A stretch of 60,794 nt of DNA from Kocuria sp. p3-SID1428 (lineage in GTDB: Bacteria > Actinomycetota > Actinomycetes > Actinomycetales > Micrococcaceae). Both the position numbers and the translations under genes were made by a program. The stretch spans positions 1 through 60,794 of the forward strand of contig NZ_JALXVH010000009.1 of NCBI RefSeq assembly GCF_025149945.1, given 5' to 3'. The notes below the pieces were generated by a model. The model was not told the DNA's origin. It was given only the letters and a program-made list of their open reading frames with translations, and did no database searches. Each line of letters starts with the position of its first letter. The first letter of the stretch is position 1. Of this stretch, positions 21,672-60,490 are shown one piece after another.

Positions 21672-21788
21672 TCCGCACGCATCCGGGCACGACGCGCCCC
21701 ACCGACGCCCGCCGCCACCCCGGAACGGGGGCAGCCCTATGAGACCCTGGTGACGAACCCCATTCGCTGTTGAGTGAAAGAGTCGCCG

Positions 21789-22946
21789 ATGCCGCTGACC
21801 GTCATGCCGATCTACGGAACCCGCCCGGAGGCCATCAAGATGGCCCCGATCGTGAAGGCCCTGCAGGACTCCGACGAGTTCGAATGCGTGGTCACCGTGA
21901 CCGGCCAGCACCGCGAGATGCTCGACCAGGTCAATGAGATCTTCGACATCACCCCGGACCACGACCTCAACATCATCCGCCCCCGCCAGACCCTCAACGG
22001 CGTGCTCACCCGCACCGTCGAAGGCCTCGACGCCATCTTCGAGAACAACGCCCCCGACGCCGTCGTCGTCCAGGGCGACACCACCACCTCCACCGCCGGT
22101 GCGATCGCCGCGTTCTACCGCGGCATCCCCGTGATCCACGCCGAGGCCGGTCTGCGCTCCTTCGACCTGTTCTCCCCCTTCCCGGAGGAGGCCAACCGCA
22201 AGATGACCTCCCAGATCACCTCCCTGCACCTGGCACCCACCGACATCTCCCGCAGGAACCTGATGGCCGAGTCCATCAACGGCGAGGACATCGTCGTCAC
22301 CGGCAACACCGTGATCGACGCCCTGCACCACACCGTGGCCCGCCAGCTGCCCTTCACCGACCCGGCCCTGGAGGACCTGGCCGCCTCCGGACGCCGCGTC
22401 CTGCTGGTCACCACCCACCGCCGCGAGAACCAGGGCGATGCCATGCGCGGTGTGGGCCGCGCCCTGGCCCGCATCGCCGCCGACGAGCCCGAGCTGACCA
22501 TCGTGCTGCCGGCCCACCGCAACCCCGTGGTGCGCGAGGCCGTGCTTCCGGCCCTGGAGGGCCTGGACAACGTCCTGGTCACCGAGCCGCTGGCCTACGG
22601 CGAGTTCACCCGCATGCTCGCCGTAGCCGACGTGGTCCTCACCGACTCCGGCGGAGTCCAGGAGGAGGCCCCCTCCCTCGGCAAGCCCGTGCTCGTGATG
22701 CGCGAGAACACCGAACGCCCCGAAGCCGTCACCGCCGGCACCGTCAAGCTCATCGGCACCGACGAGGAGCGCATCGTCGAAGAAGTCACCACCCTGCTGC
22801 ACAACGAGGCGATCTACACCTCCATGGCCAACGCCGTGAACCCCTACGGCGACGGCCGCGCCGCCGAACGCACCGTAGCCGCCATCGCCCACATGTTCGG
22901 CCTAGGCCAGCGCCTCCCCGACTTCAACCCGGAGACGCAGGCCTGA
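21789..22946 (+). CDS. wecB: UDP-N-acetylglucosamine 2-epimerase (non-hydrolysing)
   Basis: A 385-residue GT-B-fold epimerase converting UDP-GlcNAc to UDP-ManNAc in the cytoplasm. The family signatures are present: YGTRPEAIKMAPIVKAL at the N terminus, VTGQHREMLDQV, VQGDTTTS, HAEAGLRSFD, FPEEANRKM, TTHRRENQG, and the UDP site DSGGVQEEAPSLGKPVL followed by RENTERPEA. The first in-frame start is the GTG at 21774; the ATG at 21789 aligns better with the family start. Its product is the substrate of the two WecC dehydrogenases encoded at 38153 and 51221, so the three genes together make UDP-ManNAcA. The hydrolase gene follows after 17 bp. Confidence 0.96.
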   Translation: MPLTVMPIYGTRPEAIKMAPIVKALQDSDEFECVVTVTGQHREMLDQVNEIFDITPDHDLNIIRPRQTLNGVLTRTVEGLDAIFENNAPDAVVVQGDTTTSTAGAIAAFYRGIPVIHAEAGLRSFDLFSPFPEEANRKMTSQITSLHLAPTDISRRNLMAESINGEDIVVTGNTVIDALHHTVARQLPFTDPALEDLAASGRRVLLVTTHRRENQGDAMRGVGRALARIAADEPELTIVLPAHRNPVVREAVLPALEGLDNVLVTEPLAYGEFTRMLAVADVVLTDSGGVQEEAPSLGKPVLVMRENTERPEAVTAGTVKLIGTDEERIVEEVTTLLHNEAIYTSMANAVNPYGDGRAAERTVAAIAHMFGLGQRLPDFNPETQA

Positions 22947-29579: not shown

Positions 29580-30460
29580 TTAGAGAAGTTGATAGCCGAG
29601 CTCTGCCCAGCGAGGACTACTCCAATCCTCCTGCACTGAGACATTGAGGACGGCAGTGATCACGTCAGCGGGCGGGGGCTTGTGCCCCTCCCCCCCCAAT
29701 CATCTAGCAGACAGCGCATATGACCAGTACTTTCGAGCGCCTGTTTCAGCGGACGAAAGTGCGCATCAATATGATCCGCGTCACCAATGTTCTGCAGGAT
29801 GACGACCCGGTTGGACACCCCGATACCACGCTTCTTTACATAGGCAGAGGCGACGTCCGTCACAGCGGGGATGCAGACAAGAGCTTCGTCTAATACCGGA
29901 GCGGCATTGGGCCAGCGTGCACGCTGCCGCTGCTGGACGAGCGGCCTGTTGTAGTAGCGCAAGTCGGTCTGCGGATTGGCCGCGATCGAAACCACATCAT
30001 CCATCTCAAGCCCCACCACGAGTGACGCGCATCCGCCGGCCGATCCACCGTAGAGCAGCGTCGGTGTTCGATGCCCCAGCCACTCGCGATACTTCTGAAT
30101 AACCTTGCGGATCACCGAATCGAGCCTCTGCGTTTCCCAGCCCGTGTACCACGCAAGAAATATCTCTGGGGTGAGAGTTACCGCAGGGCCTGCGAAATTA
30201 ATCGTATTCATGCTCACATTGCGGCTCACGGCGAATCCGGTGAAGCGCGGCGCGAGCGAATCATTCGGAACTGCTGCCGTGAAGAACACGCCTAGCGCGG
30301 ATTCCCCCTTATCAAGATACCGGAAGTCCAGCGGTGGTCGGTTCAGCGCGATCCGCACGTAGCCAGTCGGCGGCGCGGGCGCAACAAGAAACTCTTCCAC
30401 ATCCGAGAACTCGTGATCTGGTGCGAACTCCTGGTCGATTTGAACCATCAGGCGTCCCAT
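29580..30460 (-). pseudogene. GxSAGG hydrolase-like protein (copy 3), frameshifted in a G8 tract
   Basis: From the ATG at 30460 (MGRLMVQIDQEFAPDHEF) the protein carries the family nucleophile motif LLYGGSAGGCASLVVGLEM, the NPQTD motif (AANPQTDLRYY) and a His-rich stretch DADHIDAHFRPL. As written it ends at 29660 (266 residues, ...WGGRGTSPRPLT). However, eight Gs at 29690-29697 (minus strand) precede this tail. With nine Gs the frame reads EGHKPPPADVITAVLNV... and stops at 29580-29582. That tail matches the end of copy 4 (GHAPPSAAAIRGILTRLL), so the real gene is about 293 residues and the current sequence loses the conserved GH-x-P histidine. The start overlaps the end of the upstream fusion gene by 13 bp. 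Confidence 0.78.
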
Positions 30461-33400
30461 TCTGCGAGGGCGGCTTCGAATTCGAATACCGTCACATTTT
30501 CAACTGAGCCCCGGAATGGCATCCCATACTCCAAGGACCAGGCGGCTTCGAGTTCACGATCCCGCCGCGACCGTACTCCCCGGATCGTGCCCTCACGCTG
30601 GTCGCGCCTGATCAGGAGGTCCTCTTCGCCACCGCCTGCCGTCTCACGGTTCAGACGCAGTGCTGCCTCCCATTGGGGGCTCCCGAGCACCAGTCCGCCC
30701 TCCGCCTCATGCAGTGAGAGGCCGCCATCCAGAAGGAACCAGGTGTGGAGCTTATGCTCATCTTCGTCAGCCATGATTACCGTGTCTCGGACCTCGAGCC
30801 GGCGACCGGGCGTGTAGTTCACCTCGCGACGGGCCGTCCATCCGTTCTGCGGCACTTCGGTTTGGATGGTGAAAGAACCGTCCTCGTGAGCGATCATATC
30901 CTGCAGGCCGCTCCCGTAAGGCGTTCTGCGCCTGTCCTGCATGTCGCCATCGACGCTCAGCGTGGAGTGAGCCGCGCAGGATTCCATATACTGGCGTATC
31001 GGGTCCGCGTAATAGAATCCCTTCCGACGCAGCTCGGAGTCCTGCGGGAGCAGTTCGCCATATCGGTAGCGCCCACCATCGACAAGGATCTCCTGCCCGT
31101 TCTCCATCCAGACCAGAGACTGATCATCACATTGCTTATGTGTCCGGGAATGAAAACCAGCAGTCATCGCCAGATACGAGGCCTTGGACAGAGCGTCGGC
31201 ATCGCCGCCCTTCAACGGCCGGACGAACGCGTAGCCGCTATCAGGGAGCATCAGTGCATCGTGTGCGGGAGCAGTCCCCTGCCGGCCCCTGGTGAGAACC
31301 CAGTTCGTATTGGGCGAGATCGCGCTGCGACCACCCCGCATATCTCGTTCAGGAGAGTCGCCCATCTGCAGGATCTTGCCGCTGGGCAGCACCATCCAGC
31401 CCAGGACGTCGGCAGCCCTGCGAACCCGGGCCAGCACCTCGGGGTCGTCGATCGCATGGACAGCGATTGCACCTTCGAATGAGCTGAGGAGCATTCGATG
31501 GTAGTCGGGAGAATGCTCGACGTGACCGCCATCCGTGTTGAACTGGGTTTCTGCCATCAGCCGCAGACGGCCAGTCCCCTGGTGGCGAAGTGCTTCCATG
31601 CCCTCCAGGCCCGGAAGTCCTCGAGCCAGCACTACCTGACTGACTGCGCTGTAGTAGCCGTGGTTGTTCCGAGGATTGAACGACCAGCCCTCCCAGTGAG
31701 CATCCCTCTGCTTCAGAGCAAGTCGGATGAGCGAGGTGAAAGCCTCATCGCTCACGGCGGAAGACTGCGCAGCGCCGCGAATCAGACCCTGAAGGGTGGT
31801 GGACCGATAGGCCAGGGCCATGTCATACCAGGCCATCGATTCTGAATCGATGTGGTTGAATGCGTCACCCCAGCGCAGCGCCCTGTGGACGGCCCACTCC
31901 ATATAGTGATCAGAACCGGTCAGATTCCAGGCGCCGAGGACCGGGACCATGAACTCCCAGCTATGCATATGCATCTGCCATGTCCTGTCCTGGTCGGCGA
32001 TGGCCGACCAGTCGTAGTCGGCATCGATGACCTCGCGATCGAATCCGTGACCGCCCCACCCCTCAGACATCACGGCCTCGGCCGACTTCACCTGGTCATT
32101 CTGGCCTGCCTGCCCATGAACATACAGAAAGTGCAGCGCCTCGTCCCGCGAGAGCTTCTTCAGCTCGGCGCGCAGCTGCGCGCACTCAATGAAATGGACC
32201 GTGCCGACGGGGTCGAAGAAGCGCACTCCAAGGCTTCGATAGGGCGCGTCGTAGCGATCGGCGATGGAGCGCCAGGACCGCTCCGCACGGACCCAGGCAG
32301 CGCCCTTCTCCGACATCTCCGCTCGTGCCTGCGGATCCTCGAGCAGACGGCTCAGCAGCTGTGCCAGATCATTGGGATCCTCTGCTCGGAAGGTCGCGGC
32401 CGCGCCGGACTGCCCGGCGATCTCCCGCAGGGCGTCGACGTCCGAGACCACCACGGCTCGCCCGGTGGAGAACGCCTCGAACGGCTTGAGCGGCGTCACC
32501 AGGCGGCAGACCGCCCGGTTCTTCCGCGGCACCACGAAGAGGTCGATGATGCTGTAGTAGTCGAGAACCTCCTCGTGGGGGATGCGACCGGTGAAGCAGC
32601 ACTTCGCGGCGATGCCCAGGTTCTTGGCCTGCTCCTGCAGCGCCTTGCGGACGGGTCCGTCTCCGACGAGCAGAAGGCGTGCGTCCACGCCCTGGTGCAT
32701 CATCTGGGCGAAGGCCTCGACGAGCGTGTCGATGCCCTCGTACTCCACCACGGAGGTGATGTAGCCGATGACAGGGACCTCCCTCGGGATGTCCAGTCTG
32801 TCCTTCAGCTCCAGGTCCGGCTCCACGACGGGGAAATCGGAGGGCAGCACGCCGTTGGGCGTCACGGAGATGCGCTCCGGGTCCTCACCGCGGTCGATGA
32901 TGTGCTCGCGCATGACCTCGGCCAGCGTCGTCACGTGGTCGCTGCTGGCTCGGGCCTGGTTCTCGCGCTCATGCCGCAGCGTGTAGGCATCGGGGTATCC
33001 GTAGCGCTGGTAGTCGGCCTCCAGGGGACGGCCGACGGAGGTCTCGACGCGGGAGAGCCAGGACTCCTCCCAGAAGCCGCGGCTCTCGTAGATCAGAGGC
33101 AGCCCATACGCGTCGGCCACGGGCCTGGCGATCAGCTGGTTGATGTAGTCCGAGTGGCAGTGCAGCAGCGACGGCCGCACCTCCTCCACCACAGCGCGCA
33201 GGGCATCGGTGTTCGCCTGCAGCCACGTGGCCCAGGTCTCGGTGCCTCTGGCCGGCCCCTCCGGCAGGTGATAGGTCACCCCGTCCTGGACGACGGGCGA
33301 TTCGCCGAGGGCATCGACGGAGGCGCCGGCCTGACGCATCACATGGACGTCATAGCCCTTCTCGGACTGCGCCTGAGCCAGGTAATGGGTCCGCAGCGTG

Positions 33401-35841
33401 TAGCCCGTCTGCGTCTCGGGAAGGGCCTTCCCCACGACGTGAAGGATGCGACCGGTCTCCGCGACGAAGGAGCCCTCCGCGGGGGCCGCGCACTCCGTGA
33501 CGAGCTCGCCGCTGAGCATGGCCAGCTCCGAGGCTCGGACCTCCACGGCCCGCCGGTCGCTGTCCTTGCCCGAGGCGACGGCGATGCCTCGCAGCATCTC
33601 CAGGCTGTGCGCGTAGTAGCCGCGCTGGTAGAGGGCCCGCGACAGCTTGCGCCGCTGGCCGAGGTTCATGACCAGCCCCGGGTCCCCCGACGTCCACAGC
33701 TCGTAGAGGAACATCGGATCGTCGATGTACGCGACCACATCCTTGAGCGTCAGGCTTCCGAGAACCGTCTCGCGAGGCATCCCCTGGGGAAGATGCGGGA
33801 GGACCTTGCCGATGCGCTGCCTCTGCTCGGTCACAGCCGTGTCCAGGGCCTTGGACGTCGTGGACAGTTGCTTCTCCAGTGCCTCCACACGCTTGGCCAG
33901 ACCAGCGGCGGGCTCCGTCGACACGTCGGCCGCCGGCGGCTGCTGGGCTCGCGCGGATGCGCGCGCCACCCGATCCTCGAGATCCGCGAAGCGCTGACGG
34001 ATCCACCGGTCGTTCCGACCGGAGACCACAGCGGGGCTGACGGCTCCCTGGCCGAGCAGTGCGGTCCGCTGCTCGTCCTCCGAGATCACGACCTGGTCCT
34101 CGGAGATCGTGATGCTCCAGACCCGTCCGAATCGAAGGATCCTCATCCAGGCGGACTTGGGGGTGGCTCGGCTGGACACCACGCTCCAGGTGTCCTTGGT
34201 CGACTCCCCGAACACCGCCGTGAAGACACCGGAGCGCGCCGACTTGGCGACCTCCGCGACGCCGCCGGGCTCCTTCTTGCCCCACGCGCGGGAGACCCAG
34301 CCGCGCGGAGAGCTGTCGTCGGCGTACCTGACCACCGGACGCTCTCCGTTGCCGAGCCAGGCGAGGCTCAGGCTGCTGTCGCCGTCCTGCAGCTCGACGG
34401 CGCTGTCGCGCAGGCGGGCGCGCACACCCGGGTTGAGCTGCCACAGCTGCCTGGCCGTGACCTGCTTGTCGGCGTCGAAGTGATCGATGACGATTCCGAG
34501 GTCCAGGCCCGGCAGGTAGACCAGGCGCCGACGCAGAGCCACGCCCTCGTAGTTCCGATCGACGACGGCATAGTCGTGGGCGTGGTCGGAGACCTCGGCG
34601 CGCTCCAGACGAACATGTCCGGCAGGGGCGTACTCGCGATCGTTGACGACCACCAGGTTGTGCGCCTGCCGGGAACGGAGATGCCTCCGGAACGGGTCCT
34701 TCGGCTCGTAGTTGTACGACCCCGGGTCCGTGATCCAGTCGCGTCCGCCCGAGAAGAACGTGATGCCGCCCCGGTCCTCGTGCTGGTGCGACCTGATCTG
34801 CGGGCCGTAGCGGAGGCTGTAGGAGGTCTCCTCCGCGTAGCTGCGCCCCTCGCCGCCCCAGCCGGATCGGCCCAGGATGAAGCCGTTGGGCGCGACGACG
34901 GTCGTCGACGAAGGCGGCTCGCCCTCGTCGCCGAGAGTGGCGACGTAGTCGATCTCCGGTCGGCCTGAGGCCTCGACCCTCTTCAGATGCGTGTCGCCGA
35001 TCGTCATCATGAAGCCGTCGGGCCTGGTCGCGTGCGCCAGGAAGTCAGCCGCACGGGTCAGCGTCTGGTGCACTTGCCGCGGCACTTTGACGCCTTCCAT
35101 CGCCACCCGGTCCCACGCTGAGGTCCACCACGCGAGATTGAGCCGGTGATACTCCACGGCGCCTTCGTCATTCGCCCCGTTCTCGTCGAAGGAGCCGTCG
35201 AACAGCTCCGCCAGACGCCGTACAGCAAGGTCCTGCCACTGCCCCCGACGAAGGAAGCTGGCCAGCACGAAGAGGCCCAGATCCTGGTGCAGAGCGTGGT
35301 TCCCCTCGGAGAGGTGCTCCGGATCGGCCAACCAGGTGCCATGCGTCTCGAGAGCGGCCAGCAGCGCCCTCTGCTCGTCCGGGGTCTCGGCGAGAGGCCA
35401 TCCGAAGACCATCTCCTGGGCGCGCAGACCATCCGCCATGTCAACCCACGAGAACTTGGACGCCGGGGCCTCCGGCGGATTCTGCTCGATCCATGACATG
35501 ACCGTGGCCATCCAGAAGTCACGGGCCTGCCTGTCGCCATCCATAGCCAGATGACGTGCTGGCGAGATCCATCGCAGAGCATGGTGCTGGAACTGCCAGT
35601 TGCGGGAGGAGAACGGATCGGCTGTCCAGTCGGTCAGGTCGTGGGCGACCCATTCAGGGTGCGGGGAGACGCGCATTCGTCCATCGATGAGCTTCCGTCC
35701 ACGCTCCCCGTAGTCGTCCTGCCGGATGAATCCGACTCCGAGGCACTGTCTGCTGCTGACTCCGCTATCGATGCCAAGTTCGTCGTCCGACATCGCCGAA
35801 ATTCCGTCGCGGTCCTGGGTGGAGCCGTCTGAGGTGGACAT
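30448..35841 (-). CDS. Three-part fusion: heparinase II/III-like - GT4 glycosyltransferase - heparinase II/III-like
   Basis: A 1797-residue protein from the ATG at 35841, preceded by GAAAGG. Residues 1-610 are a heparinase II/III-type toroid plus beta-sandwich (FQHHALRW, GANDEGAVEYHRLNLAWW, RSHQHEDRGGITFFSGG). Residues about 645-690 form a coiled coil (RVEALEKQLSTTSKALDTAV). Residues about 795-1205 are a GT4 glycosyltransferase (HVVGKALPETQTGYTLRTHY, GYITSVVEYEGIDTLVEAF, LVTPLKPFEAFSTGRAVVVS). From about 1215 to the end is a second alginate-lyase/heparinase-like unit (NNHGYYSAVSQVVLARGLPG, HSRTHKQCDDQSLVWMENGQ, EILVDGGRYRYGE). No signal peptide is present, so it should act in the cytoplasm on the growing polymer or lipid-linked units. 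The lyase folds could work as uronate epimerases or lyases, or as non-catalytic glycan-binding domains. The first unit is a paralogue of the gene at 1995. The gene lies 61 bp after the GT4 gene at 35903. Confidence 0.88.
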   Translation of the reverse strand: MSTSDGSTQDRDGISAMSDDELGIDSGVSSRQCLGVGFIRQDDYGERGRKLIDGRMRVSPHPEWVAHDLTDWTADPFSSRNWQFQHHALRWISPARHLAMDGDRQARDFWMATVMSWIEQNPPEAPASKFSWVDMADGLRAQEMVFGWPLAETPDEQRALLAALETHGTWLADPEHLSEGNHALHQDLGLFVLASFLRRGQWQDLAVRRLAELFDGSFDENGANDEGAVEYHRLNLAWWTSAWDRVAMEGVKVPRQVHQTLTRAADFLAHATRPDGFMMTIGDTHLKRVEASGRPEIDYVATLGDEGEPPSSTTVVAPNGFILGRSGWGGEGRSYAEETSYSLRYGPQIRSHQHEDRGGITFFSGGRDWITDPGSYNYEPKDPFRRHLRSRQAHNLVVVNDREYAPAGHVRLERAEVSDHAHDYAVVDRNYEGVALRRRLVYLPGLDLGIVIDHFDADKQVTARQLWQLNPGVRARLRDSAVELQDGDSSLSLAWLGNGERPVVRYADDSSPRGWVSRAWGKKEPGGVAEVAKSARSGVFTAVFGESTKDTWSVVSSRATPKSAWMRILRFGRVWSITISEDQVVISEDEQRTALLGQGAVSPAVVSGRNDRWIRQRFADLEDRVARASARAQQPPAADVSTEPAAGLAKRVEALEKQLSTTSKALDTAVTEQRQRIGKVLPHLPQGMPRETVLGSLTLKDVVAYIDDPMFLYELWTSGDPGLVMNLGQRRKLSRALYQRGYYAHSLEMLRGIAVASGKDSDRRAVEVRASELAMLSGELVTECAAPAEGSFVAETGRILHVVGKALPETQTGYTLRTHYLAQAQSEKGYDVHVMRQAGASVDALGESPVVQDGVTYHLPEGPARGTETWATWLQANTDALRAVVEEVRPSLLHCHSDYINQLIARPVADAYGLPLIYESRGFWEESWLSRVETSVGRPLEADYQRYGYPDAYTLRHERENQARASSDHVTTLAEVMREHIIDRGEDPERISVTPNGVLPSDFPVVEPDLELKDRLDIPREVPVIGYITSVVEYEGIDTLVEAFAQMMHQGVDARLLLVGDGPVRKALQEQAKNLGIAAKCCFTGRIPHEEVLDYYSIIDLFVVPRKNRAVCRLVTPLKPFEAFSTGRAVVVSDVDALREIAGQSGAAATFRAEDPNDLAQLLSRLLEDPQARAEMSEKGAAWVRAERSWRSIADRYDAPYRSLGVRFFDPVGTVHFIECAQLRAELKKLSRDEALHFLYVHGQAGQNDQVKSAEAVMSEGWGGHGFDREVIDADYDWSAIADQDRTWQMHMHSWEFMVPVLGAWNLTGSDHYMEWAVHRALRWGDAFNHIDSESMAWYDMALAYRSTTLQGLIRGAAQSSAVSDEAFTSLIRLALKQRDAHWEGWSFNPRNNHGYYSAVSQVVLARGLPGLEGMEALRHQGTGRLRLMAETQFNTDGGHVEHSPDYHRMLLSSFEGAIAVHAIDDPEVLARVRRAADVLGWMVLPSGKILQMGDSPERDMRGGRSAISPNTNWVLTRGRQGTAPAHDALMLPDSGYAFVRPLKGGDADALSKASYLAMTAGFHSRTHKQCDDQSLVWMENGQEILVDGGRYRYGELLPQDSELRRKGFYYADPIRQYMESCAAHSTLSVDGDMQDRRRTPYGSGLQDMIAHEDGSFTIQTEVPQNGWTARREVNYTPGRRLEVRDTVIMADEDEHKLHTWFLLDGGLSLHEAEGGLVLGSPQWEAALRLNRETAGGGEEDLLIRRDQREGTIRGVRSRRDRELEAAWSLEYGMPFRGSVENVTVFEFEAALAEWDA

Positions 35842-35902: not shown

Positions 35903-38104
35903 TCAGAGATGCGGGTGGCGCGAGGCGCCGAGCTCCATGTAGATCTCCGAGACTCGCTCGGCCATGTCATTCCACTGGCGATGCTCTCGCACCCAGGTGA
36001 GGCCATTGCTGGAGAGCTGCTGGCGCAGCTCAGGCCGTTCGACGAGCTCGGCCAGCTTGGACGTCAGGTCGTCCACGTCGCCCTTGCGGTGCAGCAGCCC
36101 CGTGACGTTCGGCTGCACGATCTCGGCCAGGGCCGCCACGTCGGAGGCGACGATCGCCTTGCCCATGGCCAGAGCCTCGAAGGGCTTGAGCGGGGAGACC
36201 ATCTCGCACACCGGCAGCGGCAGCCGCGGGAACGGGGCGATGTCCACGAGCGAGTAGTAGCGCTCCACGTCCTCGTGGGGCACCCGGCCGAGGAAGCGCA
36301 CGACGTCGCTCAGCTCGCGCTCCTCGACCTCGGAGCGGAAGCGCTCCAGCTCGGCGCCGTCCCCCACGATCACGACCGCGAAGTCGTTGCGCTGGGATCG
36401 CATCCGCTCGGCGGCCTCGATCAGCAGCCCGAGCCCCTCGTAATCCAGAACGGAGCCGATGTAGCCGATCACTGTTCTGTCTTGGAAGCCGAGCCGCGCC
36501 TCCAGCTCGGCATCGCGAGGCTGCGGGGTGAAGCGCTCTGCATCGACCGCATTGGGAACCACCGTGATCTTGTCCCCGTCCACTCCACGCTTGATGAGCT
36601 CGTCCTTCAGAGCCTGCGTGATGGCCAGGACGTGAGTCGCGTTGGCGGCCGCATCGGCCTCCATGCGCGCCATGAACCGGTACATCCCGCCCTTCGCCCA
36701 TTCGAAGTCCCTTGAACCGCGCGTGACCTCCCAGAGCCCGCGAACCTCGTAGATCGACGGAATGCCGAGCCTGTTGGCCGTGGACACCGTGGCCAGGCCA
36801 TTCCAATGGTTCGAGGCGCCGTGCAGGATCTGCGGCCTGTCCTCCATAGCCTTGGCCTCCAGCGCAGAGACGTAGCGCTTGATGTACTCCGTGATGGGGC
36901 TCTTCTTCTCGATCCCCGGCGTGGTGCTCAGCCGGTGGTACGGGACGCCGTCCACCAGGTTGGACGGGGCGATTTCCCCGAGCTTGTCCATCTTGGGCAT
37001 GTCGTAGGGGTAGCCCAGCCGGGTGACGCCCTGGACATCCCAGCCCTGGCCGCGCAGCCCGGAGAGCAGGCCGTGGGTGCGCGTGCTGTAGCCGGCCGAG
37101 TGGAAGGGCAGGGAGTTGTGCAGCATGTAGAGCACGCGATCGGGGATCGGCTCGTACGCAGCCTCCTTGCGCCGACGCGGAAAGGGGAACCCCTTCTCTG
37201 CCAGCTGGTACTTCGTGGGAGCTATCGAGATGGCCAGCCGCTCGCTCTGCTCCTTCCCCCACGCATCCGAGGGCTCCAGTCGCGTGTATTCCGCGAGCAG
37301 TCGCTGGGCCCCTTCTGTCCGATTGGCGCGCAGATCACGACGGATAGCCTGCCGCAGGCTCCAGCGAGGCACCGCCCGATCCGGCAGCTGGCGCATCAGC
37401 TCGATGGCCCGCGTACGCCGTCCGTGCTGCAGGCAGAACAGCAGCCGCGCCAGGATCCACTCGTCGTCCGCCAGCCACGCCGGCTTCTCACGGGTGGTGG
37501 CATCCTCATCGCGATGATGATGAAGATCGACCACGGCCCGAGTCACCCGATCCGGACTCGCGCCCAGGATCTCCAGGGCATCAGAACGTCGAACCGGCAC
37601 GAAGAGATCGAGGGCGCGACGATGCTGATCGGGGCGCTCGGGCAGCACGGCGATCAGCTCATCCATCGCCTCAGACACCGACGACAGCCGGTCGGTGTCC
37701 TCTCCTGCGGCGACCACCAGCATCTCCACCGCATCCAGGTTGGCCGGATTCACCGCCACGCTGTTCTTGAAGGCCTCGAAGGAGGCGTCGAAGGCCTTCA
37801 GCTCCATCAGGCGCATGGCGAACAGGAACCACGCCGAGCTGTCCTGCGGGTCCTGCAGGGTCAGCTTCCGAAGCTGGTCAGCGGCCTGGTACGCATCGTC
37901 GGCAGCCCGAGCCGCGGCTGAGGCCTCACGAAGACGCCGACCGACCTCCTCCGTCCGTTCCTCCGCGCGCCGGGGGTCCTCCCCCACGGACTCGGTCTCC
38001 GGGATGGCCCGGCATTCGTAGCCGCGGGGGGCGAGTCGCTGCGCGGCCTCTCCCCTGGCGTGCCAGAGACGACGGCGGAGTTCCTGGACGGTGACGAAGG
38101 GCAT
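35903..38104 (-). CDS. GT4 glycosyltransferase with N-terminal TPR-like region
   Basis: A 733-residue cytoplasmic or membrane-peripheral enzyme. The first 310 residues are helical, with TPR-like repeats (SAWFLFAMRLMELKAFDASF, EAFKNSVAVNPANLDAVEML). From about residue 321 a GT-B glycosyltransferase of family 4 follows: LYMLHNSLPFHSAGYSTRTH, IYEVRGLWEVTRG, VPNAVDAERF, IGYIGSVLDYEGLGLLIEA and MVSPLKPFEALAMGKAIVAS. The TPR part probably binds partner proteins of the polymer machinery. The glycosyltransferase half is closely related to those at 56368, 30448 and 47023, all with an S/T-G-Y/W motif near a THxL stretch. Sugar specificity cannot be read from the sequence. It is followed after 48 bp by the upstream wecC copy and precedes the fusion gene by 61 bp. 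Confidence 0.88.
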   Translation of the reverse strand: MPFVTVQELRRRLWHARGEAAQRLAPRGYECRAIPETESVGEDPRRAEERTEEVGRRLREASAAARAADDAYQAADQLRKLTLQDPQDSSAWFLFAMRLMELKAFDASFEAFKNSVAVNPANLDAVEMLVVAAGEDTDRLSSVSEAMDELIAVLPERPDQHRRALDLFVPVRRSDALEILGASPDRVTRAVVDLHHHRDEDATTREKPAWLADDEWILARLLFCLQHGRRTRAIELMRQLPDRAVPRWSLRQAIRRDLRANRTEGAQRLLAEYTRLEPSDAWGKEQSERLAISIAPTKYQLAEKGFPFPRRRKEAAYEPIPDRVLYMLHNSLPFHSAGYSTRTHGLLSGLRGQGWDVQGVTRLGYPYDMPKMDKLGEIAPSNLVDGVPYHRLSTTPGIEKKSPITEYIKRYVSALEAKAMEDRPQILHGASNHWNGLATVSTANRLGIPSIYEVRGLWEVTRGSRDFEWAKGGMYRFMARMEADAAANATHVLAITQALKDELIKRGVDGDKITVVPNAVDAERFTPQPRDAELEARLGFQDRTVIGYIGSVLDYEGLGLLIEAAERMRSQRNDFAVVIVGDGAELERFRSEVEERELSDVVRFLGRVPHEDVERYYSLVDIAPFPRLPLPVCEMVSPLKPFEALAMGKAIVASDVAALAEIVQPNVTGLLHRKGDVDDLTSKLAELVERPELRQQLSSNGLTWVREHRQWNDMAERVSEIYMELGASRHPHL

Positions 38105-38152
38105 GCGGTCTCCTCTGCGGGGGCAGTCAGCGATGTGTTCGGTTCTCGGTGC

Positions 38153-51120: not shown

Positions 51121-51181
51121 TCTGTGGTCCTGTCCGAGTGAGGGGGATCGAGAGGACGCGAGAACCCGGTGACGCGCGGGT

Positions 51182-51214
51182 CCGACGGCCTGCCCTCATA
51201 AGGCAGGCCGTCGG
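51182..51214 (-). terminator. Hairpin after wecC copy 2
   Basis: CCGACGGCCTGCC pairs perfectly with GGCAGGCCGTCGG (13 bp) around a 7-base loop, 7 bp after the wecC stop. There is no T run, so it may attenuate rather than end transcription into the next glycosyltransferase gene. Confidence 0.6.
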
Positions 51215-51220
51215 AGCGGA

Positions 51221-52507: not shown

Positions 52508-52583
52508 TCTTCGACGAAGCGGTGGTCGTCCACTGAATCTCGTGGTGCTGCGGCCCCGATCTGCAGGCCCGGGCATCCCCACA

Positions 52584-54536
52584 TCATAGGCTCAGGTGAG
52601 CGGTGTCCGAGCCGAAGAACACGACGTCGCCCGTGGAGATCACGTGCTGGTCCGTCACGTTCCAGGTGTGCCCGTGACCGCCGCGGAACTGCCGGAAGTT
52701 GAAGCGGTCGGTGGCATAGACGCGCCCTCCGCCGTCCACGACGTCCTGCAGGAATCCGGTGTCCTCGCCGGTCGTCCGGTCACGGAAGGGGTGAGCCAGG
52801 AAGACCTGTCGGGGCGCCATGAGGGTGGGCCCCAGCACGAAGTCTGTCCAGCGGTGCTCCCGCTCGCCGAAGCGCAGCAGCGTGGTGTCGTAGGACTGGA
52901 CATAGAGGTAACTGGCCTGCTTGCCCACCACATCCGCCTGGGTCACCCGCAGCATGGCCAGCTGATCGGCCAGGTACTCGGGGCCGTACCAGTCGTCGTC
53001 GTCCATTTTGGCGATCACCTCTCCGGAGGAGGCCTCCACGCCTGCGTTCAGGCAGGTGCCCAGCGTCCACTCGCTCGGAGCCTGCACGATCACGACGTCC
53101 TGGAGCCCCCGCTGCTGCGCGAGCTCCTGGACGCGGAACGCGGCCGGGTCGAAGCCATGACAGACCACCACGAGCTGCGGGTCCACCCCGCGCTGTGCGG
53201 CCACCGAGTCCATGGCCTGGCCCAAATTCTGCGGGCGGTTCGTGGACAGCAGCACCGAGACGGACGGGGTCGACGGCAGCCAGGAGCCGTCCTGACGCGG
53301 AAGCGCCAGGTCCAGCACAGCAGCCACACGGTGCGTGTACGTGTGATCCGCCCACACGCGGCGCTGAGCCTTGCGCACGGTGCGATCCCGCAGCTGCTTG
53401 GAGCGCACCAGCGCCCGGATAACATCGGCCGCCTGCTCGCGCGTGGCGACCACGGGCAGCTCCTCCTGCGGGAAGTACTCCCCCACGGCCGCCGAGGGCG
53501 TGGAGACCACGGCGGTGCCGCGCGAGAAGATCTCGAAGACGCGACGGGCGCACATGGACGGCGAGTCGACTACCGAGTTCACGTTGAGGAAGACCTTGTA
53601 GGACTGATAGGCCGTCAGCATCTGGGCGTAGTCCAGGGAGCCCGCCACGCGCCCGTCCAGCGGCGCGGGGAACTGATAGCGCTCGTCGTCGCCCAGGTAA
53701 CGGGAGAAGATCTCCAGACCCATGCGCATCTTGGGCGAGACGTCCATGGCCCCGCCCAGCAGCAGGTCCATCTGCTCGCGGCGCTGCGGGAACTTGTGCG
53801 CGAAATACATGCCGCCGAAGGCGACCTCCCGGGAGTCGAAGCCCCGGTCTCGGCGCACCGGCGAGTGCACGGCCGGCTGCGCGGCGAAGGCCAGGACCCC
53901 CACCCGGTCGTGGCCCAGGTCGCGGCGGTAGTGCTCGATCCGGTTGGAGTCGCTGGTCAGGACGACGTCGAAGAGCCCTGCGCACTCCAGGAAGTCGTCG
54001 TAGTGCGGCGGATCCTCCTTGTTCCAGAACACGGTGGGGATCCCTCTCCGCCGGAACTCGGCGACCATCTCGCGGAAGGGCTCCTTCACGCCCGAAGCGC
54101 CGGTGAGCTGATACTGCCATTCGTCCTGATTGCCGTGCCAGGCGGATTCCACGAACAGCAGATCCGGCTGGTGCTGCTCGAGCTGCTCCCGCCATCCGGC
54201 CCGCGTCAGCGGCACCTGATTCCACTCGCAGTCGAACGCCCGGGAGGAGAAGTCGTCCAGGATCGTGGCCGCCGTGACATCGCCGAACGGGCGGTTCCAC
54301 TGCTCCGGCCAAGGGCTCGGGGGGAAGCTGAGCCGGCCGTCGCTCAGGCGGATTGCCCCCGTGCTCCCACCCGGGAGACGACGGCGGCGCAGGCTCTTGC
54401 GGGCCTGCTGCATGCCGCCTCGGCGCAGGTGCCACGCCAGGAGGCGCAGCCGCCGGGCGGACTCCGCCAGCGAGGCGGCGGAGACTGATCTCTGGGGGGA
54501 CTTGCTCACGGACAAGGCGGGGGTCCTCTCACTCAC
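52584..54536 (-). CDS. Bifunctional glycosyltransferase: CgeB-like plus GT2
   Basis: About 650 residues from the GTG at 54536, which has GGAGG three bases upstream (short spacing; the GTG at 54509 is an alternative). An Arg-rich helical N terminus leads to a CgeB/DUF3880-like region (LLFVESAWHGNQDEWQYQL, VFWNKEDPPHYDDFLECAGL, GGMYFAHKFPQRREQMDLLL). A GT-A family 2 domain starts at about residue 425 (SVSVLLSTNRPQNLGQAMDS) with the metal-binding acidic run AKMDDDDWYGPEYLADQ. The domain order is that of the 1214-residue enzyme at 43062, of which this is a shorter paralogue. It lies 43 bp after the TagH-like gene and 100 bp before wecC copy 2. Confidence 0.88.
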   Translation of the reverse strand: MSERTPALSVSKSPQRSVSAASLAESARRLRLLAWHLRRGGMQQARKSLRRRRLPGGSTGAIRLSDGRLSFPPSPWPEQWNRPFGDVTAATILDDFSSRAFDCEWNQVPLTRAGWREQLEQHQPDLLFVESAWHGNQDEWQYQLTGASGVKEPFREMVAEFRRRGIPTVFWNKEDPPHYDDFLECAGLFDVVLTSDSNRIEHYRRDLGHDRVGVLAFAAQPAVHSPVRRDRGFDSREVAFGGMYFAHKFPQRREQMDLLLGGAMDVSPKMRMGLEIFSRYLGDDERYQFPAPLDGRVAGSLDYAQMLTAYQSYKVFLNVNSVVDSPSMCARRVFEIFSRGTAVVSTPSAAVGEYFPQEELPVVATREQAADVIRALVRSKQLRDRTVRKAQRRVWADHTYTHRVAAVLDLALPRQDGSWLPSTPSVSVLLSTNRPQNLGQAMDSVAAQRGVDPQLVVVCHGFDPAAFRVQELAQQRGLQDVVIVQAPSEWTLGTCLNAGVEASSGEVIAKMDDDDWYGPEYLADQLAMLRVTQADVVGKQASYLYVQSYDTTLLRFGEREHRWTDFVLGPTLMAPRQVFLAHPFRDRTTGEDTGFLQDVVDGGGRVYATDRFNFRQFRGGHGHTWNVTDQHVISTGDVVFFGSDTAHLSL

Positions 54537-54579
54537 ATGCCTCCGGGGGCGGGGCACGACCGGGGCGGGGCAGGCAGTA

Positions 54580-55485
54580 TCAGGTGGAGCGCACCAGCTG
54601 CAGGGGTGCCAGCTGCTCCTTGGCGTCATCACGGAACTTCTGGGCGCTGTTCAGATTCCCGTCCGCCAGCTTCTTCATGTAGCTCTCGTAGTCCTTCAGG
54701 ACCTCCGGCACGGGACCGTCGGCGATGACCTCTCCGGCGTCGATCCAGACCAGGCGCGTGCACAGGTTGCGGATCTCCGACATGGAGTGGGAGACGAACA
54801 GCACGCAACCGGCGTTGTCGCGGATCTCGGTCATGCGCGCCTTGCCGCGGGCCTGGAACTGGGCGTCGCCGGTGCCCAGCGCCTCGTCGAGGATCAGCAC
54901 CTCCGGGTTGGTGGCCGTGGCCACAGCGAAGCGCAGGCGCGCGGCCATGCCCGAGGAGTAGGCCTTCATGGGCCAATGCAGGGCCTTGCCCAGTGCTGCC
55001 ACATCCACGAGCTCGTCCATGACCTCGTCCACCTGCTGCGGGGTCATCCCCTGTGCCAGGCAGCCGAGCCGGATGTTGCGCTCCCCCGACAGGGCGGGCA
55101 CCAGGGAGACGCTCACGCCGAGCTTCGACGGACGGTCGATGGCCCAGACCCGTCCGGAGGTGGGGTTCATCTGCCCGGCCACGATGTTCATCAGCGTGGA
55201 CTTGCCGGAGCCGTTGCGACCCACGAAGCCCACGAACTCGCCCTGCTCGATCAGCAGGTTCACGTGCGTGAGCGCCTGGTTGTCGACCTGCGGCGGGCGA
55301 CCCAGAGCGCGCCTGGCAAGGCGGGTGGGAAGAGGGAGCTTCTGCTCATCCTCCCCGCCGGTGCTGGTCACCCGGTAGACCATGGTGACGTCGTCGACCA
55401 CGACGGCGGGATCGCGCACGACCCCGCCCCGTGCCGAGGCGCCCGCGGGCACCTCGACGGCGGCCTCATCGCTTCTCATCGGCAT
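54580..55485 (-). CDS. tagH: ABC exporter ATP-binding subunit (TagH/Wzt type)
   Basis: A 301-residue ATPase that powers transfer of the lipid-linked polymer across the membrane. Walker A is FVGRNGSGKSTLMNIVAG, the signature is AYSSGMAARLRFAVA (the YSSGM form typical of polysaccharide exporters), Walker B is PEVLILDEALGTGD, and the switch His is in LFVSHSMSEIRNL. The N-terminal 45 residues are a short family-typical extension. It overlaps the permease gene by 20 bp, so the two are coupled. It lacks the C-terminal carbohydrate-binding domain of Wzt proteins, which fits a TagH-like role. Confidence 0.93.
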   Translation of the reverse strand: MPMRSDEAAVEVPAGASARGGVVRDPAVVVDDVTMVYRVTSTGGEDEQKLPLPTRLARRALGRPPQVDNQALTHVNLLIEQGEFVGFVGRNGSGKSTLMNIVAGQMNPTSGRVWAIDRPSKLGVSVSLVPALSGERNIRLGCLAQGMTPQQVDEVMDELVDVAALGKALHWPMKAYSSGMAARLRFAVATATNPEVLILDEALGTGDAQFQARGKARMTEIRDNAGCVLFVSHSMSEIRNLCTRLVWIDAGEVIADGPVPEVLKDYESYMKKLADGNLNSAQKFRDDAKEQLAPLQLVRST

Positions 55486-56371
55486 AGCTCTCCTCGTTCC
55501 ACCAGAACACCAGCAGGCCGACCACCAGGGCGAGTACTGCCCACCCGATCAGGATGAGCCACGAATTCAGCGACGGCGCGGTCTCGTACAGCACGGCATC
55601 GCGGGTCATGTCCAGCACCTGGTACAGCGGGTTGAGATGGAACAGCGCCAGGATCCGCGGATCGTCCGTGAACCGCGACGGGTCGTAGAACAGACCCGAG
55701 GCGTAGAGCCACAGTCGCGTGCCCAGCGAGATCAGGTTCGCCACGTCCGGGATGCGGTGCACGAGCGGGGCGAAGAGCATGCCCGCACCCCAGTTGAACG
55801 CGGTCTGCAGCGCGAAGATGGGGATCACCAGCAGCCACAGCGGCGTGATCGCCTCCGACGGCGGGGCCAGCATGATGAACAGGAACATGGCCACCAGCAC
55901 GTACAGCTGGCTCAGGGCCTCGCGGACCACCACGCCCAGTGGCAGCGCGGCACGCGGGAACGAGAAGCCGCGGATGAGGTTCTTGCCCCCGGAGATGCTC
56001 TTAGCGCCAGCGGTGAAGGACCGCGCCGTGTAGAGGAACATCATCAGGCCGATGATCAGGTAGCCCAGGAAGTTCTCGATCCCGCGACTGGTGCCCAGCA
56101 GCAGTCCGAAGATCAGGTAGAAGGTGAACCCCAGCAGCATCGGATTGAGGATCAGCCAGATCTTGCCCAGGAACGTGTGCTCCTGGCTCACCGACAGCCT
56201 CACCCGGGCGTCGTAGAGCACGAAGTGCCGGGCTCCCCACAGCTCGCGCAGGTACCTGCCCAGCGGAGGCCGCACGCCGACGGCTTCCAGGCCGGAGGGG
56301 TCGTACTGCACGCGCCGCTGCCGCGGCTCAGCTGGCGAGTCCACGAAGAGGTCGTCAGTCACCCCTCTCAT
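55466..56371 (-). CDS. tagG: ABC exporter permease (TagG/Wzm type)
   Basis: A 301-residue integral membrane protein of the ABC-2 family with six predicted spans after a 60-residue cytoplasmic N terminus. Examples are FLGKIWLILNPMLLGFTFYL, FLGYLIIGLMMFLYTARSFT and the last span LILIGWAVLALVVGLLVFWW. The region NLIRGFSFPRAALPLG is characteristic of polysaccharide and teichoic acid exporters. It pairs with the ATPase encoded immediately downstream and would flip the undecaprenyl-linked glycopolymer out of the cell. Its start overlaps the stop of the glycosyltransferase gene at 56368 (ATGA). Confidence 0.93.
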   Translation of the reverse strand: MRGVTDDLFVDSPAEPRQRRVQYDPSGLEAVGVRPPLGRYLRELWGARHFVLYDARVRLSVSQEHTFLGKIWLILNPMLLGFTFYLIFGLLLGTSRGIENFLGYLIIGLMMFLYTARSFTAGAKSISGGKNLIRGFSFPRAALPLGVVVREALSQLYVLVAMFLFIMLAPPSEAITPLWLLVIPIFALQTAFNWGAGMLFAPLVHRIPDVANLISLGTRLWLYASGLFYDPSRFTDDPRILALFHLNPLYQVLDMTRDAVLYETAPSLNSWLILIGWAVLALVVGLLVFWWNEESYADEKR

Positions 56372-58209: not shown

Positions 58210-59423
58210 CGGCGCTTGCTCCTGTCCTCGAGGACCTCCCGCAGGATGGTGTCGTAGCGCTCGGCCAGATCCGCGTAGTCGGCATTGGCGGCCACCCACG
58301 CGCGGCCGCCGCCGGCCGTCCTCAGCCGGGACCGATCCGCGATCAGGCCGCGCCACAGCTGCGCGATCTCCTGCGCGCTGGAGCCCACCACATCGCCCAC
58401 GCCGGCCTCCTGGAGGATCCGAGCGGCCTCGCCTCGCACCACGGCGGTGAGATGACGACCCACGGCCATGACCTCGTACGTCTTGGACGGGACGGTGGCC
58501 TCGAACGACTTCCAGTCATCGCGCAGGGAGACCACCAGCGAATCGGCCTGCCGGTACTGCTCGAAGACCCTGTCCCGGTAGACCGGGTCCAGGAACCGCA
58601 CCGGAGCCCCCAGGGAGGCGGCGATGCGCTGCAGCTCGGGCTTCTGCGAGCCCTGCCCCACCAGCGTCAGCCGCATCTGCGGGCCGACCAGTGCAGCGGC
58701 CTCGATGAGCCGCTCAAGGCGCTGGCTCTCCCCGTGGTTGCCCAGATACAGCACCTCGAGGCGGTCGCGCAGAAGCGGCGGCGGATCCAGCACGGGAGTC
58801 TGCTCCAGGCGCACGCCGTTGCGCACCGTGCGCACCCGGTCAACGCCGCGGACCCGCAGCGTCTCGGCGAATCCCTCGGTCACGGTCACGACGACGTCCG
58901 CCCGATCCTGGATCGTGGCCACAGCCCAGTTGATGACCCGCTGAACCCGACCCTGCAGGACCCCGGCCTCGGTCGCGAGGTTCGGCCAGGCGTCGCGCAT
59001 CTCCACGACCAGCGGCTTGCGCCTGAGCCGAGCCGCGAACCATCCGCTGGCCAGCAGCGGCAGCGACGGTGCGGTGACGATCACCACCGAATGCCCGCGC
59101 ACCGCCAGGGTGCGCAGGGCGCTTCCCCCGGCTGTGACCAGCTGATCCACCAGCTTGGGCAGGCGGGCGTCGCGAGCGGTGAGGTACGGGACCCGCACGA
59201 TCGCCTCGCCCACCGGCCCCGGCTGCCCACGGCCCAAGCGGCCGCGGGCGGAGCGATCGGCATCCGGGCCGAAGCCGTAGTGGGCCACCGGGGCCACGAC
59301 CGTCACCAGCCAGCCCCGGCCCAGCAGGTGCGGGATCAGGGACTGCCAGCGGCGCTGCGGCGGCGAGTGCTCCGGCCAGTACGAGTGGGCGAGCAGCAGC
59401 GCGTTGGAGCGCGCTGGAGTCAC
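58206..59423 (-). CDS. GT4 glycosyltransferase (WbuB-like)
   Basis: A 405-residue single-domain glycosyltransferase of family 4, beginning LLLAHSYWPEHSPPQRRWQS. An N-terminal Rossmann half holds VEMRDAWPNLATEAGVL. The C-terminal half carries VLYLGNHGESQRLERLIEAA and SKTYEVMAVGRHLTAVV, close to WbuB-type enzymes that often add an early sugar to the lipid carrier. Both ends overlap neighbours by 4 bp (LCP gene upstream, glycosyltransferase downstream). The sugar cannot be deduced. Confidence 0.9.
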   Translation of the reverse strand: MTPARSNALLLAHSYWPEHSPPQRRWQSLIPHLLGRGWLVTVVAPVAHYGFGPDADRSARGRLGRGQPGPVGEAIVRVPYLTARDARLPKLVDQLVTAGGSALRTLAVRGHSVVIVTAPSLPLLASGWFAARLRRKPLVVEMRDAWPNLATEAGVLQGRVQRVINWAVATIQDRADVVVTVTEGFAETLRVRGVDRVRTVRNGVRLEQTPVLDPPPLLRDRLEVLYLGNHGESQRLERLIEAAALVGPQMRLTLVGQGSQKPELQRIAASLGAPVRFLDPVYRDRVFEQYRQADSLVVSLRDDWKSFEATVPSKTYEVMAVGRHLTAVVRGEAARILQEAGVGDVVGSSAQEIAQLWRGLIADRSRLRTAGGGRAWVAANADYADLAERYDTILREVLEDRSKRR

Positions 59424-60490
59424 AGGCCGCTCCCGTCGTCCGCGGCCAGCTGCTGGTAGTGCTCATCCAGCGTGCCCTCGTCGATGGCCTCGCCGATCTC
59501 CTCCATGGCCTCCTCATCGGGGAGCACGATCGACTGCCCGTCGGCGGAGGACCCGATGCCGTTGGTCGGCACCGTGAACATATGGATGTCCGAGCGGGAG
59601 ACCCCCACCATCTTGGGCACCAGCCCGCGGATGTAGCCGGAGTCCAGTCCGTCGGAGACCGTGAGGTACGGCGAGATCGTGCTCACGATGTCGGAGATCT
59701 TTCCGGGATTGGCCAGGACCTCCGGCTCCAGGAAACGATCGAGCAGCGCCTGGATGAACGCGCGCTGATTCTGCACGCGGGTGTAGTCGCCGTCCGCGAA
59801 GGAGTGGCGCTCACGGGCGAACGTCAGGGCGGTCTCGCCGTCCATCGTGGTGGGACCGGCCTCGTAGACGTCGCCGTTCTCGGTGGTGAACGACTCCGGG
59901 ACGTCCACAGTCACTCCGCCCAGGGCATCGACCAGGCCCTCGAAGCCCTCGAAGTCCACGGTCATGACCTCGTCGATCCGGGTATCGAAGTGCCCCTCGA
60001 GCGTCTCGACCATCAGCGGCATGCCGCCGTTCTGGAAGGCCGCGTTGATCTTGGCCTCGCCCACACCGGGGATGTCGACCCAGGTGTCGCGCATGACGGA
60101 CATGACGTAGATCTCGCCGCCGTCCTCCGGGATGTGCATCAGCATGATCGAATCGGCGCGCTCGCCCTCGCGGCCGAGCTCGCCGCCGCCCTCGGGCCGC
60201 TTGTCCGAGCCGAGCAGCAGGATCGTGGTGCCCTCCGTGTCCTCCGGACGATCGGCCTCGTCCGGGAAGGCCTCCGTGGAGGGCATGGAGGTCACGTTGT
60301 CGTCGTAGGAGCGCGAGAGCCCGTTGATGTACAGGGCGATGACCGCGATGACCCCGACCACGAGCACCAGGAAGGCGATCAGGAACGCGATCAGGACCTT
60401 GCGACCGCGCCTGCGACGACGAGGCCGCCCCTCGGCCTCCGGCTCACGGCCCTGGCCGTCGAACAGGTCGTCGTGGATCTCGTTGCTCAT
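59420..60490 (-). CDS. LytR-CpsA-Psr (LCP) family glycopolymer-peptidoglycan ligase
   Basis: A 356-residue protein with a short basic cytoplasmic tail (RPRRRRRGRK), one membrane span at about residues 33-53 (LIAFLIAFLVLVVGVIAVIA) and an extracellular LCP domain. Characteristic motifs are TTILLLGSDKRP, RADSIMLMHIPE, YVMSVMRDTWVDIPG, INAAFQNGG, FEGFEGLVDALGGV, ALTFARERHSF and YTRVQNQRAFIQALL. The conserved Arg and Asp residues bind the pyrophosphate of the lipid-linked polymer. LCP enzymes transfer teichoic or teichuronic-type polymers from undecaprenyl pyrophosphate to peptidoglycan. As the first gene of the minus-strand run, its placement supports a wall-attached polymer as the product. Confidence 0.94.
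   Translation of the reverse strand: MSNEIHDDLFDGQGREPEAEGRPRRRRRGRKVLIAFLIAFLVLVVGVIAVIALYINGLSRSYDDNVTSMPSTEAFPDEADRPEDTEGTTILLLGSDKRPEGGGELGREGERADSIMLMHIPEDGGEIYVMSVMRDTWVDIPGVGEAKINAAFQNGGMPLMVETLEGHFDTRIDEVMTVDFEGFEGLVDALGGVTVDVPESFTTENGDVYEAGPTTMDGETALTFARERHSFADGDYTRVQNQRAFIQALLDRFLEPEVLANPGKISDIVSTISPYLTVSDGLDSGYIRGLVPKMVGVSRSDIHMFTVPTNGIGSSADGQSIVLPDEEAMEEIGEAIDEGTLDEHYQQLAADDGSGL

What the first reader, a model, noticed from the sequence alone, without database searches (positions are those of the whole stretch)
30448..35841. Lyase-fold / glycosyltransferase / lyase-fold fusion protein in a wall-polymer locus
Sequence shows two heparinase II/III-type units flanking one GT4 domain in a single 1797-residue chain without a signal peptide. 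Uronic-acid lyases are normally secreted and degradative, so two such folds attached to a cytoplasmic glycosyltransferase in a ManNAcA locus is unexpected. The same toroid fold is used by dermatan-sulfate epimerase, so the flanking units could epimerise uronic acids during polymerisation, bind the growing chain, or cut it to set chain length. I know of no described enzyme of this architecture.
Basis: partly seen in the sequence, partly recalled or inferred. Interest (0 to 1): 0.85.

Follow-up and report, generated by a model that had tools for sequence, protein, structure and literature searches.

The report
Wall-polymer glycosyltransferase with two lyase-fold modules
Some bacteria of the genus Kocuria make one giant protein in which a sugar-adding enzyme carries, at either end, a module shaped like enzymes that normally break acidic polysaccharides, and the bacteria appear to swap these modules like cassettes, which suggests that the modules remodel the cell-wall polymer while it is being built.

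Summary
Confirmed and extended. One uninterrupted minus-strand gene (1797 aa) encodes lyase fold (U1), linker, GT4, lyase fold (U2). AlphaFold2 models of both flanks are alpha-toroid plus beta-sandwich; the best solved match of each is PL12 heparinase III, and the PL12 Asn/Tyr/His triad is kept in both. Thirty protein clusters share the architecture (the 8 with an organism name are Kocuria), so it is no assembly error. Outside Kocuria the pieces occur as GT4-U2 fusions and, in one locus, as three separate neighbouring genes. The window also holds a UDP-GlcNAc 2-epimerase, two UDP-ManNAc dehydrogenases, an ABC exporter and an LCP ligase. Across the family, heparinase-fold proteins track with UDP-ManNAc dehydrogenase (45 of 53 genomes with the fold, 103 of 242 without). 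New here: U1 and U2 are exchanged independently around a near-constant GT4 (for example 95/100/49% and 56/95/100% identity), giving all four combinations of two U1 and two U2 clusters. Best reading: a cytoplasmic synthase whose lyase-fold modules act on the nascent ManNAcA polymer before export, most likely by C5 epimerisation. That reaction is inferred; cutting/capping or binding are not excluded. The papers searched did not list this architecture.

The parts
30448..35841 (-). The gene: 1797 aa, U1 - linker - GT4 - U2
   Evidence: Single open frame, Pfam domains, 30 full-length relatives, start site
34072..35772 (-). U1 (residues 24-590): N-terminal PL12-like toroid plus beta-sandwich; triad equivalents N181, Y231, H352
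   Evidence: AF2 plus Foldseek/VIA; PDB alignment; residues kept in 31 of 31 three-part proteins and 39 of 39 rows of A4
33457..34044 (-). Linker (residues 600-795): two long helices, then short helices; low-confidence joints
   Evidence: AF2 secondary structure and pLDDT; sequence
32224..33453 (-). GT4 glycosyltransferase (residues 797-1206), closest NCBIfam model TIGR04063 (below its cut-off)
   Evidence: Pfam, NCBIfam 296 bits against cut-off 442
30451..32169 (-). U2 (residues 1225-1797): C-terminal PL12-like toroid plus beta-sandwich; triad equivalents N1393, Y1447, H1568; GC3 falls to about 0.7-0.8 from residue ~1200
   Evidence: AF2 plus Foldseek/VIA; PL12 alignment; residues kept in 31 of 31 three-part proteins; N 51/51, Y 50/51, H 51/51 in A5; GC3
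35903..38104 (-). GT733: GT4 glycosyltransferase directly upstream, same cassette
   Evidence: Pfam; same neighbour in L036 and L026
38153..39415 (-). UDP-ManNAc dehydrogenase, copy B
   Evidence: NF008286 560.9 bits, cut-off 459
29660..30460 (-). u266: unknown 266 aa protein overlapping the stop of the gene by 13 bases; conserved neighbour
   Evidence: homologues after the three-part gene in L036 and L026
51221..52582 (-). UDP-ManNAc dehydrogenase, copy A (cassette A, followed by GT1365 and GT1214)
   Evidence: NF008286 556.3 bits
43062..51120 (-). Large glycosyltransferases GT1365 (47023-51120) and GT1214 (43062-46706) of cassette A
   Evidence: Pfam; relatives in Kocuria loci
54580..56371 (-). 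ABC exporter: ATPase 54580-55485, permease 55466-56371
   Evidence: Pfam ABC_tran, ABC2_membrane
52584..54632 (-). GTcgeB: glycosyltransferase next to the exporter
   Evidence: Pfam; frequent neighbour of UDP-ManNAc dehydrogenase
59420..60490 (-). LytR-CpsA-Psr wall-polymer ligase
   Evidence: Pfam LytR_cpsA_psr E 6e-41
21774..22946 (+). UDP-GlcNAc 2-epimerase (expected to supply UDP-ManNAc); same window, outside the minus-strand cluster
   Evidence: Pfam Epimerase_2 E 1.1e-114

Best explanation
It is a cytoplasmic polymer-assembling protein: a GT4 glycosyltransferase carrying two uronate-active modules of the PL12 (heparinase III) fold. It acts on a ManNAcA-containing wall polymer (teichuronic-acid-like) at the inner face of the membrane, before the ABC transporter exports it and the LCP enzyme attaches it to the wall. 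Shown: domain order, predicted folds, kept catalytic residues, no export signal, locus content, statistical tie of the fold to UDP-ManNAc dehydrogenase, and independent exchange of U1 and U2 around a near-constant GT4. Inferred: the modules abstract the C5 proton of ManNAcA (or another uronate) in the nascent chain, most likely giving the C5 epimer (L-GulNAcA-type) by lyase-like chemistry as in dermatan sulfate epimerase; each module has its own target residue or context, and module exchange changes the polymer's chemotype.
Confidence: 0.45

Rival explanations
1. The modules are true lyases that set chain length: they cut the growing ManNAcA chain in the cytoplasm. Beta-elimination at a 4-linked uronate leaves an unsaturated, O4-less non-reducing end that cannot be extended, so one cut both trims and caps the chain for export.
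For: Closest folds and triads are those of PL12 lyases. In M. luteus polymer the ManNAcA is 4-linked (PMC3005890 abstract), so elimination is possible. Recalled, not tested: chains exported by ABC transporters are often ended by a cap (WbdD type). A SAM-methyltransferase/heparinase fusion exists (P0126).
Against: Two different cutting modules in one chain are hard to explain by trimming alone; the modules are optional among dehydrogenase loci, while chain-end control should be general; swapping between deep types fits specificity better than trimming.
Confidence: 0.25
2. The modules are non-catalytic clamps: lyase folds retained for gripping the acidic chain to make the GT4 processive.
For: Fusion to a glycosyltransferase; substrate-binding clefts of the fold (established knowledge).
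Against: Asn, Tyr and His of the triad are kept in 31 of 31 three-part proteins in both modules, in 39 of 39 rows of A4 (U1) and in 51, 50 and 51 of 51 rows of A5 (U2), which a pure binder would not need.
Confidence: 0.12
3. The modules clear misassembled or unexported polymer inside the cell (quality control), as proposed for lyases of other capsule makers.
For: Lyase fold; the idea is mentioned for capsule lyases in PMC6037467.
Against: Deletion of the Vibrio heparinase-like gene abolished capsule rather than leaving it intact; fixed fusion to a GT4 and module exchange are not expected of a scavenger.
Confidence: 0.1
4. Assembly or annotation artefact that joins separate genes.
For: In another genome the parts are separate genes (L112).
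Against: Thirty full-length clusters including named isolates, two other genomes, no stop inside the frame.
Confidence: 0.01

Closest known systems
PL12 heparinase III / HepC (4MMH, 5JMD)
   Same: Toroid plus beta-sandwich fold over nearly the whole module; Asn240/Tyr294/His424 equivalents kept
   Different: About 16-18% identity in the structural alignments; far below the NCBIfam HepC cut-off (49.8 of 600 bits); no signal peptide; fused to a GT4 in a biosynthetic locus
Dermatan sulfate epimerase 1 (6HZN)
   Different: Weaker match than PL12; eukaryotic enzyme; no glycosyltransferase attached
GT4 glycosyltransferases of exopolysaccharide loci (TIGR04063 stp3)
   Same: Middle domain over its whole length
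   Different: Below the family cut-off; flanked by lyase folds; a PEP-CTERM/exosortase setting was not looked for
Vibrio vulnificus VV0358
   Same: Heparinase II/III-like protein required for capsule (PMC6037467, passages)
   Different: Gram-negative capsule; no glycosyltransferase part mentioned in the passages seen; sequence not compared here
Micrococcus luteus teichuronic acid synthetase
   Same: Makes a ManNAcA wall polymer at the membrane from two glycosyltransferase activities in one complex (PMC3005890 abstract)
   Different: The abstract describes only glycosyltransferases; no lyase-fold part mentioned there

Membership tests
PL12 polysaccharide lyase (heparinase III) | (alpha/alpha) toroid plus antiparallel beta-sandwich | tested here: met
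   Predicted models, both modules
PL12 polysaccharide lyase (heparinase III) | Catalytic Asn/Tyr/His triad | tested here: met
   U2 N1393/Y1447/H1568 align with 4MMH chain residues 216/270/400, which I read as N240/Y294/H424 (offset 24, counted by hand; residue names from PMC12088678); U1 N181/Y231/H352 by alignment to 4FNV and 5JMD; counts
PL12 polysaccharide lyase (heparinase III) | Sequence score over the curated HepC cut-off | tested here: not met
   NF045572 49.8 bits of 600; NF045573 39.2 of 700
PL12 polysaccharide lyase (heparinase III) | Secreted or periplasmic location | tested here: not met
   No signal-like N-terminus by hydropathy in the gene or in 30 of 30 full-length relatives; no dedicated signal-peptide predictor was on hand
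PL12 polysaccharide lyase (heparinase III) | Beta-elimination of heparan sulfate | not testable with these tools
   needs enzyme assay
Dermatan-sulfate-epimerase-like C5 epimerase | Shared fold | tested here: met
Dermatan-sulfate-epimerase-like C5 epimerase | His205/His450 acid-base pair of the epimerase | not tested
   The epimerase sequence was not aligned residue by residue
Dermatan-sulfate-epimerase-like C5 epimerase | C5 epimerisation of a polymer uronate | not testable with these tools
   needs NMR or deuterium exchange
GT4 glycosyltransferase | Both GT4 halves over Pfam cut-offs | tested here: met
   PF00534 96 bits (26.4), PF13579 60.1 (29.7)
ABC-exported, LCP-attached ManNAcA wall polymer locus | UDP-ManNAcA supply genes, ABC exporter, LCP ligase in one region | tested here: met
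ABC-exported, LCP-attached ManNAcA wall polymer locus | ManNAcA present in the polymer | not testable with these tools
   needs polymer chemistry

The most novel reading that the evidence does not exclude
A cassette-swapped polymer synthase: a constant GT4 core flanked by two exchangeable, catalytically live lyase-fold modules that rewrite (epimerise) or cap the uronic acids of the nascent wall polymer in the cytoplasm, so that recombining U1 types with U2 types generates surface chemotypes, in the manner of the swapped recognition domains of type I restriction specificity subunits (recalled analogy), here applied to glycan chemistry.
Probability: 0.35. Interest if true: 0.9.

Novelty: new variant of a known kind. 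Interest (0 to 1): 0.76.

Why it matters
Proteins of this fold are named after degradative lyases (heparinase II/III). Here the fold is built into a glycosyltransferase, tied to UDP-ManNAc dehydrogenase across a family, kept with its catalytic residues, and swapped between strains. If the modules modify the nascent chain, 'heparinase II/III family' annotations in Gram-positive glycan loci may name biosynthetic, perhaps epimerising, enzymes, and Kocuria offers natural module chimeras to test what each module does to the polymer. A chain-capping lyase would be a new way to end a polysaccharide (as far as I know).

Tried and rejected
Assembly error or joined genes: rejected. Loss of the catalytic His in U2: by eye I first took Q1570 (HKQCDD; most relatives have HKHCDD) for a lost catalytic His; the PL12 alignment shows that the catalytic His is H1568 and that PL12 itself has Gln two residues later (HAQPD), so nothing is lost. 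A requirement of the fold for every ManNAcA locus: rejected, 7 of 19 Kocuria genomes with the dehydrogenase have no PF07940 hit and no U1/U2 hit in the stretches fetched (L062 is cut by its contig end). 'Always two heparinase units per locus': not general; several loci show one. The profile of U1 (A2) found no PDB entry by sequence, although single-sequence phmmer and fold comparison did. The window's own whole genome is not held. Class-level PF07940 search: 145 of 394 genomes, too mixed for a conclusion on architecture. Paper searches that listed nothing on this architecture: no paper; 2; 3; 20 of 55 shown; 5; some searches asked related questions; no bioRxiv held; I saw listings only, apart from the four papers cited (passages of three, outline with abstract of one).
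Full report
OBSERVATION. The gene lies on the minus strand, 30448-35841, 1797 aa, one open frame. A longer in-frame start exists (36006), but at 35841 GAAAGG stands 7 bases before the ATG and the start lies past the stop of the preceding gene. Pfam finds Hepar_II_III_N and _C in two stretches each, around a GT4. I call the flanks U1 (residues 24-590) and U2 (1225-1797); a linker (600-795) precedes the GT4 (797-1206).

THE FAMILY. Of 51 proteins found by the whole-length search (7994 candidates scored, more existed), 30 (P0002-P0031) are full-length with the same order, 51-92% identical; the 8 whose listed names bear an organism are all Kocuria (one of them, P0012, is flagged UNVERIFIED_CONTAM by its source). 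P0032 is U1-linker-GT4 only; P0033 and P0035 (K. turfanensis) are linker-GT4-U2; P0036-P0048 are GT4-U2 (Brevibacterium, Brachybacterium and Glutamicibacter among the named); P0034 is GT4-GT4-U2. A search with U2 adds GT4-U2 in Sanguibacter keddieii (P0108), a half GT4 with U2 (P0091), a SAM-methyltransferase-U2 (P0126), and stand-alone relatives in Pseudomonas and Caulobacter.

SEPARATE GENES ELSEWHERE. In L117 and L135 a U1-type gene lies in a GTcgeB-dehydrogenase cassette (in L117 right after a GT733 relative, as in the window). Of 14 order-level loci that I fetched out of the 27 of 396 genomes matched, 9 hold GT4-U2 (L100-L108), 3 a partial or degenerate GT4 with U2 (L109-L111), 2 a U2 without GT4 in the frame (L112, L113). 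The Kocuria chain thus looks like a fusion of three co-located gene products.

LOCUS. The window holds a UDP-GlcNAc 2-epimerase, two UDP-ManNAc dehydrogenases, ABC exporter, LCP and several glycosyltransferases. In the 12 Kocuria PF07940 loci that I fetched two cassettes recur. A: dehydrogenase-GT1365-GT1214-stand-alone U1-type heparinase; in 9 of 12 a U1-type gene follows GT1214 (directly in 8; in L030 another heparinase-fold gene lies between; L032 shows no GT1365; in some loci the dehydrogenase is beyond the stretch fetched). B: dehydrogenase-GT733-three-part gene-u266, in 2 of 12 (L026, L036; L026 also has a stand-alone U1-type gene). L028 shows neither. The window has both cassettes, with A lacking its heparinase.

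STATISTICAL TIE. I tallied the overlap by hand from the two tables, taking both draws to be the same genomes: 45 of 53 against 103 of 242, Fisher p 1.5e-8; over the cut-off 44 of 48 against 104 of 247, p 6e-11. The 8 with the fold and no dehydrogenase hit are G055, G064, G079, G087, G122, G134, G239, G250. In Kocuria, 12 of 27 have PF07940, 19 of 27 the dehydrogenase at 70% or more, all 12 among the 19, p 0.003; the stretches of the other 7 show no U1 or U2 hit. Of 24 non-Kocuria PF07940 loci (24 of 42 such genomes, taken mostly from the top of the table), 16 have the dehydrogenase at 50% or more in the 20 kb stretch; the misses are L116, L119, L121, L126, L132, L133, L134, L136. L119 and L121 still hold a GT1365 relative, the dehydrogenase of L119's genome is cut by the edge of the stretch (G218:C1:199018-200259), and L116 gave no heparinase ORF with my profiles. 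Chance from one gene per 3.4 Mb would be about 0.6%. Genomes are related, so these p values overstate independence.

TOPOLOGY. No signal or membrane segment by hydropathy in the gene or in 30 of 30 full-length relatives; of the 16 proteins P0033-P0048, 11 begin with a strongly hydrophobic stretch, which in most looks by eye like two adjacent membrane helices followed by coiled coil, placing GT4 and U2 in the cytoplasm. ABC-exported polymers are made there (established knowledge), so the modules can meet the nascent chain.

MODULE EXCHANGE. Identity per segment among the 31 three-part proteins: P0002/P0005 U1 99, GT4 99, U2 47; P0004/P0013 56, 95, 100; P0009/P0022 57, 83, 100; window/P0005 95, 100, 49; window/P0007 56, 93, 95. 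Clustered at 65% identity there are 6 U1 and 8 U2 clusters but one GT4 cluster; U1 clusters 1 and 4 occur with U2 clusters 2 and 8 in all four combinations (1/2: 2, 1/8: 4, 4/2: 6, 4/8: 2 proteins). Other clusters are mostly seen in one or two combinations. The drop lies at residues 1200-1220 and, less sharply, at 660-800. In the window GC3 falls from about 0.9 to 0.7-0.8 from residue ~1200. Caveat: many of these proteins come from metagenome contigs; among those in these four combinations, the named ones alone (P0005, P0010, P0012) give two combinations, though P0013 and P0022 are clusters of 12 sequences. No nucleotide-level recombination test was made.

MECHANISM. Kept catalytic residues, cytoplasmic location and fusion to a GT argue for chemistry on the growing chain. 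PL12-type residues abstract the C5 proton of a uronate; elimination gives a cut, re-protonation gives the C5 epimer. Because the modules are optional, come in two kinds per chain and are swapped, I favour residue-specific modification (epimerisation of ManNAcA) over trimming; neither sequence nor fold can decide. Precedents: a heparinase-like protein needed for capsule in V. vulnificus (PMC6037467, passages); dermatan sulfate epimerase (PMC3717172, passages).

NOVELTY. Searches for heparinase with teichuronic acid, with glycosyltransferase/ABC/capsule, and related terms listed no paper on this architecture. Each part is known; the combination, the tie to ManNAcA loci and the module exchange appear undescribed in what I could search.

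Noticed in passing
window 43062-52582 and 35903-39415: Two dehydrogenase-glycosyltransferase cassettes stand in one cluster; cassette A lacks the stand-alone U1-type heparinase that follows GT1214 in 9 of 12 fetched Kocuria loci.
   Followed up: partly
window 30451-32240: GC3 of the U2 part is about 0.7-0.8 against about 0.9 for the GT4 part of the same gene, matching the swap junction.
   Followed up: partly
L026, L033, L034, L035, L112, L117: Six U1-type ORFs scanned are 960-1088 aa, with some 400 C-terminal residues that have no Pfam match.
   Followed up: no
P0126: SAM-dependent methyltransferase fused to a U2-type heparinase fold (1180 aa): another biosynthetic-type fusion.
   Followed up: no
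L100-L104, L106, L107: A further, distant heparinase-fold ORF of about 960-1520 aa lies beside the GT4-U2 gene; two were scanned, one below and one just above the Pfam cut-off.
   Followed up: no
window 27763-29529: 588 aa protein of low GC3 (0.59), no Pfam hit, weak match to a macrolactam cyclase model; a 40% relative lies between the U2 and GT4 genes in L109.
   Followed up: no
window 39736-41694 and 22964-24286: Plus-strand 652 aa protein without a Pfam family over cut-off, and a 440 aa protein with a prolyl-oligopeptidase match; both have relatives in a number of the Kocuria loci.
   Followed up: no
   Followed up: no
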